NCBI GenBank assembly: GCA_009783115.1
Contig: WRHT01000087.1
Coordinates: forward strand, 1-6,425
Direction of reading: 5' to 3'
Origin: Desulfovibrionaceae bacterium
GTDB lineage: Bacteria > Desulfobacterota > Desulfovibrionia > Desulfovibrionales > Desulfovibrionaceae
DNA: 6,425 nt
Part shown: piece after piece, positions 91-6,367 of the stretch
How the letters are laid out: every line of letters starts with the position of its first letter
How positions within the stretch are numbered: the first letter of the stretch is position 1
Notes under the pieces: generated by a model
What the model saw: the letters and a program-made list of their open reading frames with translations, nothing else
Told to the model about the DNA's origin: nothing
Databases searched by the model: none
Position numbers and translations under genes: made by a program

Positions 91-330
91 ATGGAAATCA
101 TCGGCGCTTATGAAGCCAAAACTCATCTCTCCCAAATCCTGGACCGGGTTGCCGGAGGAGAAAAAATAACCATTGCCCGACATGGCGTGCCTGTGGCGGT
201 TTTGCAACCCGCCGCTCCCGCGAAACAGACGCCCGTGCGTGCGGTCATTGAACAGTTGCGGGGCTTTCGTAAGGGCCATCGCCTGGGAGATATTTCTCTG
301 CGCGAGTTGATTGAAGAGGGCAGAGATTGA
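91..330 (+). CDS. Phd/YefM-family antitoxin (VapB role)
   Basis: This 79-residue protein is the antitoxin of a type II TA pair. The N-terminal half matches the Phd/YefM fold: MEIIGAYEAKTHLSQIL, then the G-GEKITIARHGVPVAVL stretch (about residues 22-38), which in this family forms the dimeric DNA-binding domain. The C-terminal part (about 45-79) is charged and contains RGFRKG and LRELIEEGRD, the kind of flexible segment that wraps the toxin. Length is normal. The ATG at 91 has an AGGG 6 nt upstream. The stop overlaps the toxin start by 4 nt, so the two are translationally coupled. By family knowledge the antitoxin neutralises the toxin and, with it, represses the operon. Phd-type antitoxins pairing with PIN toxins are common. 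Confidence 0.9.
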   Translation: MEIIGAYEAKTHLSQILDRVAGGEKITIARHGVPVAVLQPAAPAKQTPVRAVIEQLRGFRKGHRLGDISLRELIEEGRD

Positions 331-752
331 GGCCCGTCCGGTTCGTGATCGACAACTCCATTGTCATGGCTTGGTGTTTTGATGATGCGGAAGACGATTA
401 TGCGGATGCGGTCCTGGAAAGCCTTGAAACCGGCCAAGCCCTCGCGCCTGCCGTTTGGCCTCTGGAAACAGGAAATGTCCTGCTCGTCGCTGAACGGAGA
501 CAACGAATAAACCGGGCCGCAACCGTCCGTTTTTTAGAACTTCTCGACGCCTTGCCCATCCAGGTGGAACAGGAACCGCCCGAGCGAATGTTCAAAGAAA
601 TCGTTTCCCTGGCCCGGGAACAGGAACTTTCCACCTACGACGCTTCCTATCTGGATCTCGCTATGCGGCGCGACCTCCCTCTGGCCACCAGGGACACCGC
701 CCTTTTAAAAGCGGCCCGACGATGCGGGATCCCATTATTTGAGCCTGATTAA
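327..752 (+). CDS. vapC: VapC-family PIN-domain RNase toxin
   Basis: This 141-residue protein is a Mg-dependent PIN-domain endoribonuclease, the toxin partner of the preceding gene. All four expected acidic active-site residues are visible: D9 in FVIDNS, E47 in PLETGN, D105 in TYDASYLDLA and D123 in TRDTALL. The toxin therefore looks catalytically intact, and its length is typical. The start is TTG at 327, overlapping the antitoxin stop as TTGA, with GAGGG at 316-320 as ribosome-binding site. The next ATG (codon 14) would remove D9, so the TTG is preferred. VapC enzymes usually cut initiator tRNA, other tRNAs or rRNA; the target here cannot be predicted from sequence. Confidence 0.92.
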   Translation: MRPVRFVIDNSIVMAWCFDDAEDDYADAVLESLETGQALAPAVWPLETGNVLLVAERRQRINRAATVRFLELLDALPIQVEQEPPERMFKEIVSLAREQELSTYDASYLDLAMRRDLPLATRDTALLKAARRCGIPLFEPD

Positions 753-927: not shown

Positions 928-1983
928 ATGAATTTCACATCCGCGGTTTCACCAAAAGAGCTTTTCGAGGTGCTTCTCCACGTTGCGCCGGTCCGCCCGG
1001 TGTTCATCTGGGGTCCGCCCGGTATCGGCAAGTCCGCCTTGGTGGGACAGTTCGCCCAAGCTGTGGGCTTGCCCTGCGTCTCGCTTCTCGGCAGTCAACT
1101 GGCGCCGGAAGATATAATCGGCGTGCCGCAGATCGTTGACGAGTGCAGCGTCTTCCGCCCGCCGCGGCATATTGCCCGCCAGGAGGCCTACTGCCTTTTC
1201 CTGGATGAACTCAACGCCTGCTCCCAGGAAGTGCAGAAGGCGTTTTACAGCCTGATCCATGAGCGCAGGATCGGCGAATACGAATTGCCGGCCGGCTCGG
1301 TCGTCATAGGCGCGGGCAACAGGGCCCAGGACAGCGCCATCGTCAAGCCCATGTCCTCCGCCCTCATCAACCGTATGGTCCATTTTCAGCTTAAGGTGTC
1401 TTCGCGGCAATGGCTGGACTGGGCTGGGGAAAGCGGCATTCATCCCCATATCATGGAGTATGTCGGGCTCAGGCCGGATCACCTGTGGTCCCAGCCGCCC
1501 AAAACGGAAGAACCTTTTTCCACCCCCCGTTCCTGGCATATGCTGAGCGATGCCCTGAAAGAATATGGAGACGCCTTAAAGCCGGAGGATATATCCCGCC
1601 TGGCCAGGGCCTGCCTTTCCCCGCATCATGCGGTGCAGTTCAACGCTTTCATCAAGCAGATACAGAACCGCTTCCAGCTTTCGGCCATCATCGACGGCAA
1701 GGCCCCCTGGCCGGATGAGCCGGAAAATCGCGATGTGCTTTATTTTTTGGCCCAGTCGCTGCGGGCGCGGCTGATCAAGGAACTGCCAACGGACAAGAAA
1801 AAGCTTTCCTCCTCAAGCCAGCAACTTGCCCTTTCCGGCAAACGGGTTATCAAGGACCTGGCCCGCATAAGCGTGGAAATCGCGCGGATGGTAGTGAGCC
1901 CGGAAGAAGACGTCAAAAACCGCCTTCCCGAATGGTTCCTCATTGAACTCGTGCGCGATCTGCCCAGATTGGCGGCCAAGTAA
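928..1983 (+). CDS. MoxR-type AAA+ ATPase
   Basis: This 351-residue cytosolic AAA+ ATPase is of the MoxR group. Motifs in order: Walker A GPPGIGKS (residues 29-36), Walker B CLFLDELN (89-96), sensor 1 in GAGNR (N131), a candidate arginine finger in ALINRM (R149) and a sensor 2 motif STPRSW (R201). Residues 205-351 form a helical lid and a family-specific tail without a recognisable extra domain. The ATG at 928 is chosen over an in-frame TTG at 892 because GGAAAGGG lies 5 nt before it and the 12 extra residues look like leader. The stop is 4 nt before the next gene, so the two are one operon. MoxR ATPases typically act with a VWA-domain partner, here the next gene, to remodel protein complexes or help metal insertion. 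The substrate is unknown. Confidence 0.92.
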   Translation: MNFTSAVSPKELFEVLLHVAPVRPVFIWGPPGIGKSALVGQFAQAVGLPCVSLLGSQLAPEDIIGVPQIVDECSVFRPPRHIARQEAYCLFLDELNACSQEVQKAFYSLIHERRIGEYELPAGSVVIGAGNRAQDSAIVKPMSSALINRMVHFQLKVSSRQWLDWAGESGIHPHIMEYVGLRPDHLWSQPPKTEEPFSTPRSWHMLSDALKEYGDALKPEDISRLARACLSPHHAVQFNAFIKQIQNRFQLSAIIDGKAPWPDEPENRDVLYFLAQSLRARLIKELPTDKKKLSSSSQQLALSGKRVIKDLARISVEIARMVVSPEEDVKNRLPEWFLIELVRDLPRLAAK

Positions 1984-1987
1984 GCTT

Positions 1988-3766
1988 ATGGACAAGCCTT
2001 CCCTGGTGACGGCGGCCGAGCATTTTCACCGGCGTGGTTTTAAACCGCCGCCGCTCTTCCGGTATATATACAAGCAAGTGTACTTATCTACGGCCCCGCG
2101 CCAGGGATATCCGGCCAAGGGCCTGGCCAGGGTCAGCCAGGCGGGGAGCATCGTTTTCAACCCAAAGCGCAAGGCCTTGCCGGCGGAATGGGATTATGTC
2201 CTTGCGCATTGCCTCTTGCATCTGGTTTTTGGCCATATCGTGTCCAAGCCGTTTCCCTCGGAATGGGCCGTGGCCTGCGATGTTTTCACCGCCCGGTTCC
2301 TGGCGGAACTCAAAATAGGAAAGTCCCCGGCTGAATATCCGCAGCTTCCTCAACTGACGGTTTCAAATGAGGAACAACTATACGAACAGCTTGTCCGGGA
2401 TGGATTGGGCCAGGAGTTCCTCGGCTTTGGCGTGGCCGGAAATGAACCTGATTTTGAGGTGGGCAACCTTTCCGCCCGGCGAAATCAAGACTGGACTTTA
2501 TTGTTTGCCCAGGGCCTCGGGCAGGCCGTTGAGGATACCGTGCGCGGGGTCGGTTCCGGTGAATACGGCGACGCCGGCACCGTCCCGCTGACCGAAGCGC
2601 AAAAGGCCAAACAATGGTTCATTTCCAGTTATCCGCTGCTTGGTGCCCTGGCTTCTTCTTTCGCGGTCATTGAAGACTCGTTTGTCTGCGCCTCTCTTAA
2701 TATTTCCGTCGCCGCTGTCAGCGAAGAACTGCGGGAAGTATATGTCAACTCGAATTTCAGGCATACCGAAGGCGAGTACCGCTTCATCATGGCCCACGAA
2801 TTGCTCCATGTCGGGCTGCGTCATCGGGGCCGCCGCGGGGGCCGGGACGCCTATTTGTGGAACGTGGCCTGCGATTTCGTCATCAACGGGTGGCTGCTGG
2901 AGATGGAGGTGGGGCATATGCCCGGCTTCGGTATGCTCTACGATGAGGAATTCAAGGGGCTTTCCGTGGAAGAAGTCTACGCCCGCGTAGCGGTCGATTT
3001 GCGCCGCTGCCGGAAACTGGCGACCCTGCGCGGCGTGGGCTTGGGGGATATGTTGGAAGGGGGAGATCTGTCGGGAAAACAGGCCCCCAGCCCGGTGGTT
3101 GACCTGGACGATTTTTGCCGGGAAGCCCTGATGCAGGGCCTTCTCTATCACCAGGAACGTCAAAGAGGCTTTTTGCCCGCCGGCCTCATTGAGGAGATCC
3201 GCGCCCTGGCCCAGCCGCCCATCCCCTGGGACGTGGACTTGGCCCGCTGGTTTGATTCCTTTTTTGCTCCGCTGGAGAAAAGACGTTCTTACGCCCGTGC
3301 CAGCAGGCGCCAATCCGCCACCCCGGATATCGCCCGCCCCAGCCACCTGCCTCAGCCGGATAAGGAGGACGCCAGGACTTTCGGCGTGGTGCTGGACACC
3401 TCCGGCTCCATGGACAGGGCGCTTCTGGCCAGGGCCCTGGGAGCTATCGCCAGTTACGCCATTTCGCGGGATGTGCCGCTGGTGCGCGTGGTCTTCTGTG
3501 ACGCCGCGGCCTATGACGAAGGCTATATGCCGCCGGAAGATATCGCCTGGAGGGTGCGCATCAAAGGGCGGGGCGGGACCATTCTGCAGCCGGGAGTAGA
3601 TTTACTGGAAAAGGCCAAGGATTTCCCCTCCCAAGGGCCGCTTCTGATTATCACGGACGGTGAATGCGACAAGCTCGCCATTCGGCGGGAACACGCTTTT
3701 TTGATCCCCAAGGGCAAGCGCCTGCCTTTTTTCCCGTGGGGCAAAGTGTTCCTATTCTCGGATTGA
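1988..3766 (+). CDS. DUF2201-type VWA protein with duplicated metallopeptidase domain
   Basis: This 592-residue protein is the presumed partner of the MoxR ATPase. It has three parts. Copy 1 (about residues 7-137) carries HCLLHLVFGH (74-83) and WAVACD (93-98). Copy 2 (about 202-339) carries HELLHVGLRH (270-279) and WNVACD (291-296). Both have the H-x3-H-x4-H spacing of a zincin, but in copy 1 the catalytic Glu is Cys75. The C-terminal VWA domain (about 464-592) has a complete metal-ion-dependent adhesion site: DTSGS (470-474), T531 in GRGGTILQ and D557 in IITDGE. There is no signal peptide or membrane segment, so it is probably cytosolic. The ATG at 1988 lies 4 nt after the ATPase stop; an in-frame ATG at 1943 lies inside the ATPase gene and is less likely. 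By family (PF13203 plus PF09967) it is a putative metallopeptidase; activity and substrate are unproven. Confidence 0.9.
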   Translation: MDKPSLVTAAEHFHRRGFKPPPLFRYIYKQVYLSTAPRQGYPAKGLARVSQAGSIVFNPKRKALPAEWDYVLAHCLLHLVFGHIVSKPFPSEWAVACDVFTARFLAELKIGKSPAEYPQLPQLTVSNEEQLYEQLVRDGLGQEFLGFGVAGNEPDFEVGNLSARRNQDWTLLFAQGLGQAVEDTVRGVGSGEYGDAGTVPLTEAQKAKQWFISSYPLLGALASSFAVIEDSFVCASLNISVAAVSEELREVYVNSNFRHTEGEYRFIMAHELLHVGLRHRGRRGGRDAYLWNVACDFVINGWLLEMEVGHMPGFGMLYDEEFKGLSVEEVYARVAVDLRRCRKLATLRGVGLGDMLEGGDLSGKQAPSPVVDLDDFCREALMQGLLYHQERQRGFLPAGLIEEIRALAQPPIPWDVDLARWFDSFFAPLEKRRSYARASRRQSATPDIARPSHLPQPDKEDARTFGVVLDTSGSMDRALLARALGAIASYAISRDVPLVRVVFCDAAAYDEGYMPPEDIAWRVRIKGRGGTILQPGVDLLEKAKDFPSQGPLLIITDGECDKLAIRREHAFLIPKGKRLPFFPWGKVFLFSD

Positions 3767-3895: not shown

Positions 3896-3903
3896 GGTGG
3901 CAT
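3876..3903. promoter_or_regulatory. Inverted repeat over the -10 box, candidate operator
   Basis: ATGCTACCA (3876-3884) and TGGTGGCAT (3895-3903) are inverted copies with eight of nine positions matching, separated by 10 nt. The pair encloses the -10 hexamer, and its right arm ends in the toxin start codon. A protein bound here would block RNA polymerase. TA operons are commonly autorepressed from such palindromes, so this is probably the original operator for the lost antitoxin. That is inference from position and symmetry. Confidence 0.5.
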
Positions 3904-4324
3904 GAAACGAATCCTTAAGACCCGCACCTTCTGCCGGTGGCTGCGCAAGACCGAATTGCAGGACAAGATGCTGTTTAAGGCGGTTGAGGAAATGGAAAAC
4001 GGGCTTGTGGATGCCGATCTGGGCGGAAGTGTTTTCAAAAAAAGGATAGCATTGCCCGGCCGGGGGAAAAGCGGAGGCGCCAGAACCCTGATCGCCACGA
4101 ATAGGGCAGACCGTTGGATTTTCATATATGGCTTTGAAAAAAATGAGAGAGACAACATCACGCAGCCCGAGCTTGTTTTCTTGCAAGGGATTGCCCACGA
4201 CTTGCTTGGCTGTTCAGAGGAGGCCCTGTTGAACGCCATAACTCAAGGAGATAGCCAGAGCTCTTTATGGCAACTATCGTCCGGAGCATCTGCTGCAATT
4301 AAGGCAAGCTGTCAGAAGTTATGA
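3902..4324 (+). CDS. RelE-superfamily toxin (PF06296-like) with IS-derived tail
   Basis: The first roughly 117 residues look like the RelE-type toxins of family PF06296 (formerly DUF1044): MKRILKTRTFCRWLRK at the N-terminus, AVEEMENGLVDADLGG, then KKRIALPGRGKSGGARTL (about 47-64), RWIFIYGFEKNER (71-83) and a C-terminal helix ending near AITQGD (112-117). Such proteins usually end near 110-120 residues. The last 23 residues here are an out-of-frame reading of transposase sequence, so the native C-terminus was replaced by the insertion scar. The antitoxin, normally a downstream helix-turn-helix gene, is absent. The gene has its own strong promoter, apparently leaderless, and no clear ribosome-binding site. 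Whether the product is still toxic is unknown; survival without an antitoxin suggests it is weak, silent or neutralised from elsewhere. Confidence 0.8.
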   Translation: MKRILKTRTFCRWLRKTELQDKMLFKAVEEMENGLVDADLGGSVFKKRIALPGRGKSGGARTLIATNRADRWIFIYGFEKNERDNITQPELVFLQGIAHDLLGCSEEALLNAITQGDSQSSLWQLSSGASAAIKASCQKL

Positions 4325-4964
4325 ATTCTATCAAGCTGAAATCCTTGAATGTGAGCAGGCGATCTCACATCAACTGGAATTGATCATGAGAAGAAGTGAC
4401 ACCGGCAATAATCAGGATGGAGGCTATGGCCCATCTGGAGACTTGACGCGGGCGGAAGCCCTGGAAAGAATTTGCGGCGTAGACCTGACCAAAATAGAAG
4501 GCATAAGTCCGGCTTCGGCTTTGACCATTTTAGCGGAAATAGGCACGGATATGAGCCGCTGGAAATCGGCCAAGCATTTTGCCTCTTGGCTGGGCTTGTG
4601 CCCGGGCATAAAAAAAAGCGGCGGCCGCCTGATCAGCGGCGCCAGCCGCCGGGTATTAAATCGCGCGGCAGTCGCTTTAAGGTTGTCCGCTTACTGTTTG
4701 CATCGCTCTAAAAGTGCTTTAGGCGGATATTTACGGCGCCTAAAAAGCCGAATCGGAGCGCCAAAAGCGATTACGGCCACGGCCCATAAATTGGCTCGTT
4801 TGATCTACACTTTGCTCAAACATGGTCAGGAATATGTACAAGCCGGTCAAGAGGCCTACGAAAAGCAATTCCAAACACGCAAACTCAGAGCATTGCATAA
4901 CAATGCTAAATCAATGGGCTTTAATCTGGTTCCCGTAGAACATACAACGGGTTGTTCTTTATAA
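4242..4964 (+). pseudogene. IS110-family transposase, 5'-truncated
   Basis: The frame is open from 4242 (a TAA lies just before, at 4239-4241) to the stop at 4962-4964, giving 240 residues without a credible start. It begins with LKEIARALYGNYRPEHLL, typical of the middle of IS110 transposases, followed by a helical linker. It then covers the whole C-terminal Transposase_20 domain: ICGVDLTKIEGISPAS, the FASWLGLCPG block, KKSGGRLISGASRR (Ser encoded at 4617-4619 is the likely catalytic serine), then LHRSKSALGGYLRRL and APKAITATAHKLARLIY. Intact IS110 transposases have roughly 400 residues; the missing N-terminal part holds the RuvC-like DEDD catalytic domain, so this is dead. It is fused onto the toxin gene with the two reading frames overlapping out of phase. 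Confidence 0.88.
4242..4964 (+). mobile_element. IS110-family element remnant
   Basis: Only the 3' coding half of the element remains. The left end, the catalytic DEDD region and any left-side noncoding (bridge RNA) region are gone, with the break at about 4240-4255 inside the toxin gene. The right boundary is uncertain: IS110 elements lack conventional terminal inverted repeats, and the dispersed-repeat sequence starts directly after the stop at 4965. No target duplication is visible. Confidence 0.7.
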
Positions 4965-5198: not shown

Positions 5199-5531
5199 TC
5201 AAAATTGAATGCTTTTTTGTAATGAACCGCTTTCTTGCTCAGTCAGCCATTTTTCAATCCGCTCCCCGGTCAATTCCCACCCCTCAAGCGGAAAATTGGC
5301 GACAATATCCAACTTAAATTTTTGATACCGCGTCATGACCAGAGAGCGAAAAGACGGCCCCCAAAAATCCGCCAGAATAGCCAAGGCCAATTGAGCCGGG
5401 CCAGGACCCCCATGGCCCCACTCAAAACCGGCAGGGTTGTGGTTATGCCAATCAAGACGCCAATCCAAGGGCCGATCATCAACCAAGACAGTAACACCCG
5501 ACTCAGACCGGGCGCCAGTGTAAATTTTCAT
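5199..5531 (-). CDS. DUF6166-family small protein
   Basis: This 110-residue soluble protein of unknown function resembles DUF6166: an N-terminal MKIYTGARSESGVTVLVDDR strand region, RPLDWRLDWHNHNP, and the family signature FEWGHGGPGPAQLALAIL (36-53), then a helical C-terminal part with YQKFKLDIVANFP and GWELT. The ATG at 5529-5531 is chosen over a TTG one codon upstream; a GGAAGGGA ribosome-binding site precedes it on the minus strand. It has no signal peptide and no recognisable catalytic motif. It diverges from the secreted-protein gene at 5699, sharing a 167-nt intergenic region. DUF6166 proteins are often seen on mobile or phage-related DNA, which fits here, but that gives no function. Confidence 0.75.
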   Translation of the reverse strand: MKIYTGARSESGVTVLVDDRPLDWRLDWHNHNPAGFEWGHGGPGPAQLALAILADFWGPSFRSLVMTRYQKFKLDIVANFPLEGWELTGERIEKWLTEQESGSLQKSIQF

Positions 5532-5592
5532 CAATATTCCCTTCCGGTTTATTTAATCCACTTCATTACTCCTTGACTTTACTAAACTCTTC

Positions 5593-6043: not shown

Positions 6044-6061
6044 TGAAGGAGGGTATTGATT

Positions 6062-6367
6062 ATGTCCTTAAGCAAGTCCGACAACCCCACAGTCCGTTTA
6101 GATGCCCGCATCCCCCTCCATATCAAGAAGAACCTGGTCACGGCCGCCGCCCTTTCCGGCCGTAGTCAGACCGATTTTCTCATCACCGCCGTCAACGAGG
6201 CGGCGCAAAAAGTCATTGCCGAACACAGCCTGATTACTCTCTGCTTGGAAGACCAGGAAGCCTTGGCCAAGGCTCTGCTGGATGAAAACGCGCCCTCGGA
6301 CGGACAACGGTGGGGCAGATTACGAAAAGCTCTCTCTCGGCATTCTCATGAAGTGGACAGCCGATGA
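6062..6367 (+). CDS. tacA: TacA-family (DUF1778) antitoxin
   Basis: This 101-residue protein is the antitoxin of a type II pair whose toxin is an acetyltransferase. The N-terminal ribbon-helix-helix is visible: strand TVRLDARIP (10-18), helices IKKNLVTAAALSGRSQTDFL and the following segment to about 54. The C-terminal toxin-binding part holds LCLEDQEALAKALLDE (60-75), close to the LSLEDQEAF signature of the family. The ATG at 6062 has AAGGAGGG at 6046-6053; a TTG two codons upstream is less well spaced. Its TGA overlaps the next ATG (ATGA), the normal TacAT arrangement. By family, TacA represses the operon with TacT and blocks its acetylation of aminoacyl-tRNA. Confidence 0.9.
   Translation: MSLSKSDNPTVRLDARIPLHIKKNLVTAAALSGRSQTDFLITAVNEAAQKVIAEHSLITLCLEDQEALAKALLDENAPSDGQRWGRLRKALSRHSHEVDSR

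What the first reader, a model, noticed from the sequence alone, without database searches (positions are those of the whole stretch)
1988..3766. Tandem zincin domains, first copy with Glu-to-Cys at the catalytic position
Residues about 7-137 and 202-339 of the VWA protein align along their length. HCLLHLVFGH (74-83) and HELLHVGLRH (270-279) are 196 residues apart with identical H-x3-H-x4-H spacing. W-x-VACD follows 10-12 residues later in each, then LKIGKSP/MEVGHMP and NEEQLYEQLV/SVEEVYARVA. The second copy keeps the catalytic Glu; the first has Cys75. A Cys beside two His could bind metal or make a redox switch, so copy 1 may be a regulatory pseudo-peptidase. In the DUF2201 proteins I know, one copy is usual.
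Basis: partly seen in the sequence, partly recalled or inferred. Interest (0 to 1): 0.75.

Follow-up and report, generated by a model that had tools for sequence, protein, structure and literature searches.

The report
Twin protease domain, one copy dead
This bacterial protein carries two copies of a zinc-protease fold in a row, the first of which has lost its catalytic residue but kept its metal-binding histidines in relatives from several phyla, and it travels with a molecular motor gene that in about one sampled locus in five lies near genes for repairing cut RNA.

The parts
928..1983 (+). MoxR-type AAA+ ATPase gene, partner of the zincin-VWA protein (ATG 928 is the likelier start; the longer ORF begins at TTG 892)
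   Evidence: AAA_5 E 1.1e-12, Walker A GPPGIGKS and Walker B LFLDEL in the translation (motif names recalled); GGAAAGG upstream of ATG 928; MoxR ORF upstream on the same strand in 80 of 80 relatives' loci
1988..3766 (+). 592-aa DUF2201 protein: pseudo-zincin copy 1, zincin copy 2, VWA
   Evidence: starts 4 bp after the MoxR stop
2030..2413 (+). zincin copy 1, residues 15-142 (pseudo-peptidase)
   Evidence: hhalign to copy 2 98.9%; own model pLDDT 91.3, pTM 0.85; best VIA-align matches are zincins
2207..2236 (+). HCLLHLVFGH, residues 74-83; Cys75 codon at 2210-2212
   Evidence: His conserved 434/437, 435/437, 437/439; Glu at position 75 in 0 of 437
2264..2281 (+). WAVACD, residues 93-98 of copy 1
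   Evidence: C97 314/439, D98 301/439; D98 is Arg in 122 of 439 rows
2594..3013 (+). zincin copy 2, residues 203-342 (catalytic-type)
   Evidence: Pfam DUF2201_N 203-451, 83.5 bits; 30 positions at 98% or more conserved
2795..2824 (+). HELLHVGLRH, residues 270-279
   Evidence: H270 438/439; E271, H274, H279 and D296 439 of 439
3365..3763 (+). VWA domain, residues about 460-592; MIDAS D470-x-S472-x-S474 (3395-3412), T531, D557
   Evidence: Pfam DUF2201 467-563; these residues invariant in the 45-sequence alignment; VWA structures fill the fold search

Best explanation
SHOWN: the gene encodes a two-copy DUF2201 protein in which copy 2 has the sequence features of an active zincin and copy 1 is a conserved pseudo-zincin that has lost the catalytic Glu but kept the three-His motif; its gene lies 4 bp behind a MoxR AAA+ ATPase gene, and a MoxR gene was found upstream in all 80 loci examined. 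INFERRED: MoxR hexamers and the VWA domain form the usual MoxR/VWA remodelling couple; the VWA domain docks on the ring and grips a substrate through its MIDAS site; copy 2 cuts the remodelled substrate; copy 1 is a metal-stabilised, non-catalytic domain that positions substrate or holds copy 2 in a regulated state, in the way that dead copies serve in other duplicated metallopeptidases (recalled). INFERRED more weakly: in many bacteria this machine serves RNA repair and ribosome rescue, perhaps by clearing proteins from damaged RNA or ribosomes.
Confidence: 0.6

Rival explanations
1. Copy 1 is a metal or redox sensor in which Cys75 is a zinc ligand or switch that gates copy 2.
For: Cys is the commonest residue at position 75 (327 of 437) and a second Cys (C97) lies near in sequence in 314 of 439.
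Against: Cys75 is replaced in 110 of 437, mostly by Ala, Ser, Asn or Gly, with at least 23 switches on the tree; Cys97 is Ala in 123 of 439.
Confidence: 0.1
2. Copy 1 is only a scaffold: the three His are kept for fold stability or helix capping and no metal is bound.
For: D98 is Arg in 120 of 120 rows from the search begun with an actinobacterial protein; L067 and L074 live without most of the motif.
Against: Three His at zincin ligand spacing are three of only six positions at 98% or more in the domain, hard to explain without a metal.
Confidence: 0.2
3. Proteolysis is not what the protein is for: it is a MoxR/VWA chaperone for metalloenzyme or complex assembly, as NorQ/NorD is, and the zincin domains only bind.
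For: Catalytic Glu is missing in 7 of 22 single-copy bacterial DUF2201 proteins sampled, so the family tolerates loss of catalysis; NorQ/NorD is needed for iron insertion into nitric oxide reductase (PMC9976466, passages).
Against: Copy 2 keeps Glu in 439 of 439 two-copy rows and 79 of 79 viral single copies fetched keep it.
Confidence: 0.2
4. The RNA-repair link is hitch-hiking: defence and repair genes gather in the same islands and the MoxR-DUF2201 pair is unrelated to them in function.
For: The window pair sits among toxin-antitoxin genes and an IS110 remnant; 64 of 80 loci show no such gene; the single-copy comparison is small (0 of 20).
Against: Five repair families recur (RtcB, Hen1, Pnkp, RlaP, PrfH-like) and a sixth, Thg1, occurs once; in 11 of 80 loci such a gene is directly upstream on the same strand; the hosts are Bacillota, Pseudomonadota and Synergistota (phylum names partly recalled).
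Confidence: 0.4

Closest known systems
DUF2201 / DUF2201_N (PF09967, PF13203), single-copy bacterial and viral members
   Same: zincin with H-x3-H-x4-H (HExxH in most) plus VWA in most, and a MoxR relative in the locus in 18 of 20 bacterial single-copy loci
   Different: mostly 370-550 aa with one zincin domain; the window protein has a second, Glu-less copy in front
Jumbo-phage group 2.2 MoxR plus metallopeptidase-vWA pair (PMC7824862, passages read)
   Same: MoxR ATPase paired with an N-terminal metallopeptidase fused to vWA
   Different: described there with 'a' peptidase domain and proposed to act in virion assembly; 79 of 80 viral relatives fetched here are single-copy. I did not fetch the paper's own example proteins
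NorQ/NorD and other MoxR/VWA couples (PMC9976466, passages read)
   Same: MoxR AAA+ ring with a VWA partner whose MIDAS is essential for function
   Different: the passages read do not give NorD zincin domains; the substrate here is unknown
vWA-MoxR ternary conflict systems (PMC7159879, passages read)
   Same: vWA and MoxR components, rarely with a metallopeptidase domain fused in the effector position
   Different: DUF2201 is not named in that text; no third component was identified here
Minigluzincins selecase (MJ1213) and proabylysin
   Same: closest solved sequences to copy 2 (selecase E 1.9e-5, proabylysin 0.73) and among the closest folds to copy 1
   Different: single domains of about 105-110 residues; no VWA, no duplication
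Wss1-Cdc48 (PMC4559962, abstract and passages read)
   Same: a minigluzincin-like protease working with an AAA+ ATPase to clear proteins during nucleic-acid repair
   Different: eukaryotic, DNA damage and SUMO; different AAA+ family; analogy only
M16 peptidases such as pitrilysin (recalled, not tested)
   Same: duplicated metallopeptidase domain in one chain with one copy inactive
   Different: different fold and inverted HxxEH motif

Membership tests
DUF2201_N (PF13203) | Pfam match above the curated cut-off, copy 2 | tested here: met
   83.5 bits against 23.2, residues 203-451
DUF2201_N (PF13203) | Pfam match above the cut-off, copy 1 of the window protein | tested here: not met
   one stretch only in the window protein; copy 1 passes on its own score in four of the 12 genomes
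Zincin fold, copy 1 | profile homology and predicted fold | tested here: met
Active zincin peptidase, copy 1 | catalytic Glu of HExxH | tested here: not met
   Cys75 in the window; Glu in 0 of 437 rows
Active zincin peptidase, copy 2 | HExxH with Glu | tested here: met
   E271 in 439 of 439; activity itself not testable here
Metal-binding zincin site, copy 1 | candidate metal-ligand His kept in sequence | tested here: met
   H74, H78, H83 near invariant
Metal-binding zincin site, copy 1 | bound metal | not testable with these tools
   needs purified protein
MoxR/VWA couple | adjacent MoxR AAA+ gene | tested here: met
   4 bp gap in the window; MoxR upstream in 80 of 80 loci
MoxR/VWA couple | intact MIDAS in the VWA domain | tested here: met
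   D470, S472, S474, T531, D557 invariant in 45 rows
MoxR/VWA couple | physical interaction | not testable with these tools
   no complex prediction available
RNA-repair system component | RNA-repair gene in the same locus | tested here: inconclusive
   no such Pfam match among the nine window ORFs scanned; 16 of 80 two-copy loci, 0 of 20 single-copy loci

The most novel reading that the evidence does not exclude
The two-copy DUF2201-MoxR pair is a general protein-clearing protease machine of bacterial RNA repair and ribosome rescue, an RNA-side counterpart of Wss1/Cdc48, in which copy 1 is a metal-bound dead protease that recognises the RNA-protein or ribosome substrate and gates copy 2.
Probability: 0.18. 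Interest if true: 0.82.

Novelty: new variant of a known kind. Interest (0 to 1): 0.56.

Why it matters
I found no described function for DUF2201 in the papers I could search (four papers hold the word; I saw only the listing and abstract starts, and none is about it by title; COG3864: 0 papers). A conserved dead protease domain fused to a live-looking one, next to an AAA+ motor gene and recurrently linked to RtcB, PrfH-like release factors, Hen1/Pnkp and RlaP, makes an unassigned family testable: is there a bacterial protease step in RNA repair or ribosome rescue?

Tried and rejected
Rejected: chance similarity of the two copies (column-shuffle, VWA and linker controls under 1%). Rejected as necessary: Cys75. 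Rejected: a pseudo-copy unique to this window; Glu is missing from copy 1 in all 437 rows that have a letter there, and is also missing in 7 of 22 single-copy bacterial DUF2201 proteins (rows dropped there: L093-L096 and L114 as weak matches, apparently other proteins, L118 cut by a contig end, L103 two-copy).

Led nowhere: Foldseek and VIA-align with the whole model are filled by VWA domains, and Foldseek with copy 1 alone finds nothing significant. The copy 1 profile finds no solved relative by sequence. PADLOC and NCBIfam give no family for the protein. Rfam gives nothing in the window, and there is no tRNA. Viral L184 looked two-copy by motif but its first motif is not a zincin domain. No coordinates of models are given, so the third metal ligand (H83, D98 or another) could not be measured.

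Literature: the RNA-repair review cited as reference 73 in PMC6514570 is one I could not read (tried an id from memory and was not held), so prior mention of MoxR-DUF2201 there cannot be excluded. Searches: RNA repair, RtcB, Hen1, Pnkp, AAA+ ATPase, vWA with at least five needed: 0 papers; RtcB with MoxR: 3 papers, of which I read passages of PMC7824862 and PMC11090510; neither passage set links RtcB to a MoxR-DUF2201 pair; three or more of six related terms: 14 papers, 12 listed; MoxR, VWA and metallopeptidase: 4 papers.

Limits: the 439 rows are 359 of the 360 proteins in the three capped lists (best 120 each; P0011 has no copy 1) plus 80 locus ORFs (77 from L001-L080, 3 from later loci), after removal of rows with identical ends; they are relatives, not independent draws. 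One search's text filter dropped 3 of 80 loci (L061, L069, L073); the profile search brought them back. L041 has the two copies in separate ORFs and is not among the 439. The RNA-repair seeds come from two-copy loci, which favours finding them there; the single-copy set is only 20 loci. RtcB was confirmed by Pfam in five of the 11 loci (L032, L033, L041, L048, L078), the other six by similarity. 'PrfH-like' rests on an RF-1 domain and small size in L005 and L048, in L048 also on RtcB next door; it is my inference.

Full report
What is there. The window carries a two-gene unit: a MoxR-type AAA+ ATPase (likely 928-1983; AAA_5 E 1.1e-12) and, 4 bp later, a 592-residue protein (1988-3766) that Pfam splits into DUF2201_N at 203-451 and the VWA-like DUF2201 domain at 467-563. 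Pfam leaves the first 200 residues blank.

How is copy 1 changed? I aligned 439 two-copy rows: 359 proteins from three capped searches and 80 locus ORFs. In copy 2, E271 is Glu in 439 of 439. In copy 1, position 75 is Cys 327, Ala 64, Ser 14, Asn 14, Gly 12, others 6 of 437, and never Glu. The three His are kept in 434/437, 435/437 and 437/439. Only six copy 1 positions reach 98% (W68, H74, H78, H83, F104, E128) against 30 in copy 2, so the domain drifts fast while the His stay. D98, the match of the invariant D296 of copy 2, is Asp in 301 and Arg in 122 of 439; Arg is in all 120 rows of the search begun with an actinobacterial protein. A few members have lost most of the motif (L067 Comamonas, L074). 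Reading: a pseudo-zincin that most likely still holds a metal. This follows from the conservation pattern and is not shown.

Cys75. On a tree of 150 of these rows built from copy 2 and VWA only, Cys/non-Cys needs at least 23 changes (FastTree). Cys is favoured but exchanged for other small residues, which argues against an essential Cys ligand or redox switch.

Origin. In a tree of 75 domain sequences (19 copy 1, 19 copy 2, 20 bacterial and 17 viral single copies) copy 1 is one side of a branch (SH-aLRT 98), with members labelled Planctomycetota, Pseudomonadota, Chloroflexota, Acidobacteriota and Synergistota among others. The tree has only 144 columns, 34 of 72 inner branches are open, copy 1 sits on a long stem, copy 2 as a group has no support (12), and the program warns that long branches meet. 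So a single origin of copy 1 with early loss of Glu is the simplest reading, not a proven one. Of 80 viral loci fetched (best 80 of 212) 79 are single-copy and keep HExxH; the one two-copy case is L126; one phage record, MT835968, also matches over 95% of the query. Of 22 bacterial single-copy proteins sampled, 7 lack the Glu, so loss of catalysis is recurrent in this family.

Partners. A MoxR ORF lies upstream on the same strand in 80 of 80 genome loci found with the two-copy profile. A MoxR relative was also found in 18 of 20 single-copy bacterial loci. The MIDAS residues are invariant in 45 rows. This fits the MoxR/VWA couple, for which NorQ/NorD is a studied case (PMC9976466, passages), and resembles the MoxR plus metallopeptidase-vWA pair noted in jumbo phages and proposed there to act in virion assembly (PMC7824862, passages).

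RNA repair. Clustering the neighbours of the 80 loci brought up RtcB RNA ligase. With seeds for RtcB, Hen1, Pnkp, RlaP, a PrfH-like RF-1 protein and Thg1, 16 of 80 loci carry at least one: L005, L009, L012, L024, L032, L033, L039, L041, L048, L061, L069, L070, L071, L072, L078, L079 (Pfam support for some). In 11 of these such a gene is directly upstream on the same strand, 7 to about 300 bp away (L005, L024, L032, L048, L061, L069, L070, L071, L072, L078, L079). L024 (Nitrosospira) has a partial RtcB, an RlaP-like gene and Hen1 before the pair and Pnkp after it; L048 has RtcB, a PrfH-like gene, then the pair. At the RtcB density of 19 genomes in hand (18 genes by my count, in 121 Mb) 0.10 RtcB genes are expected in the 681 kb of flanks; 11 loci have one. 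Kinship makes these fewer independent events: L070, L078 and L079 are Lachnospiraceae, L033 and L039 Paenibacillus, L061 and L069 Azospirillum. In 20 single-copy loci (303 kb, pair included) none of these seeds hit (Fisher p 0.02 for all families, 0.07 for RtcB alone). The immediate neighbours also include many unrelated genes: of 84 scanned, no Pfam family matched more than three. RtcB2-PrfH is reported to protect E. coli against colicin E3, which cuts 16S rRNA (PMC9223846, abstract), and PrfH-RtcB operons gather accessory genes (PMC6514570, passages); MoxR is not named in that text. The window has no such gene among the ORFs scanned, so for this copy the link is by family only.

Mechanism. 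Best reading: MoxR pulls, VWA grips, copy 2 cuts, copy 1 holds or gates. Wss1 with Cdc48, a minigluzincin-like protease with an AAA+ partner that clears proteins during DNA repair (PMC4559962, abstract and passages), is the working analogy for an RNA-repair role; it is an analogy, not a homology claim for the complex.

Verdict. Observation confirmed, interpretation partly supported. The tandem pseudo-zincin plus zincin is a conserved variant of DUF2201; the RNA-repair neighbourhood is the most useful new lead.

Noticed in passing
window 91-752 +: Phd/YefM-type antitoxin (91-330) overlapping a PIN-domain toxin gene (327-752), just upstream of the MoxR gene.
   Followed up: no
window 3902-4324 +: RelE-type toxin (PF06296, 141 bits) downstream of the zincin-VWA gene; I did not look for its antitoxin.
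   Followed up: no
window 4380-4964 +: IS110-family transposase remnant: only the Transposase_20 part is matched, so it looks truncated.
   Followed up: no
window 5199-5534 - and 6056-6367 +: A DUF6166 protein on the minus strand and a TacA-type antitoxin near the window end; with the two toxin genes the region is rich in toxin-antitoxin parts.
   Followed up: no
L091, L099, L105, L116, L117, L122, L123: Single-copy bacterial DUF2201 proteins without the catalytic Glu (HHVLH, HTVLH, HMILH, HHVGH twice, HIVLH, HMVLH), 7 of 22 sampled.
   Followed up: partly
P0121-P0240: Copy 1 Asp98 replaced by Arg in 120 of 120 proteins of the search begun with an actinobacterial protein, while the three His are kept.
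   Followed up: partly
L061:7829-9064: Downstream of the RlaP-MoxR-DUF2201 genes in Azospirillum lies a Cas_GSU0053-family gene, with a similar gene at the same place in L069, suggesting a CRISPR locus alongside.
   Followed up: no
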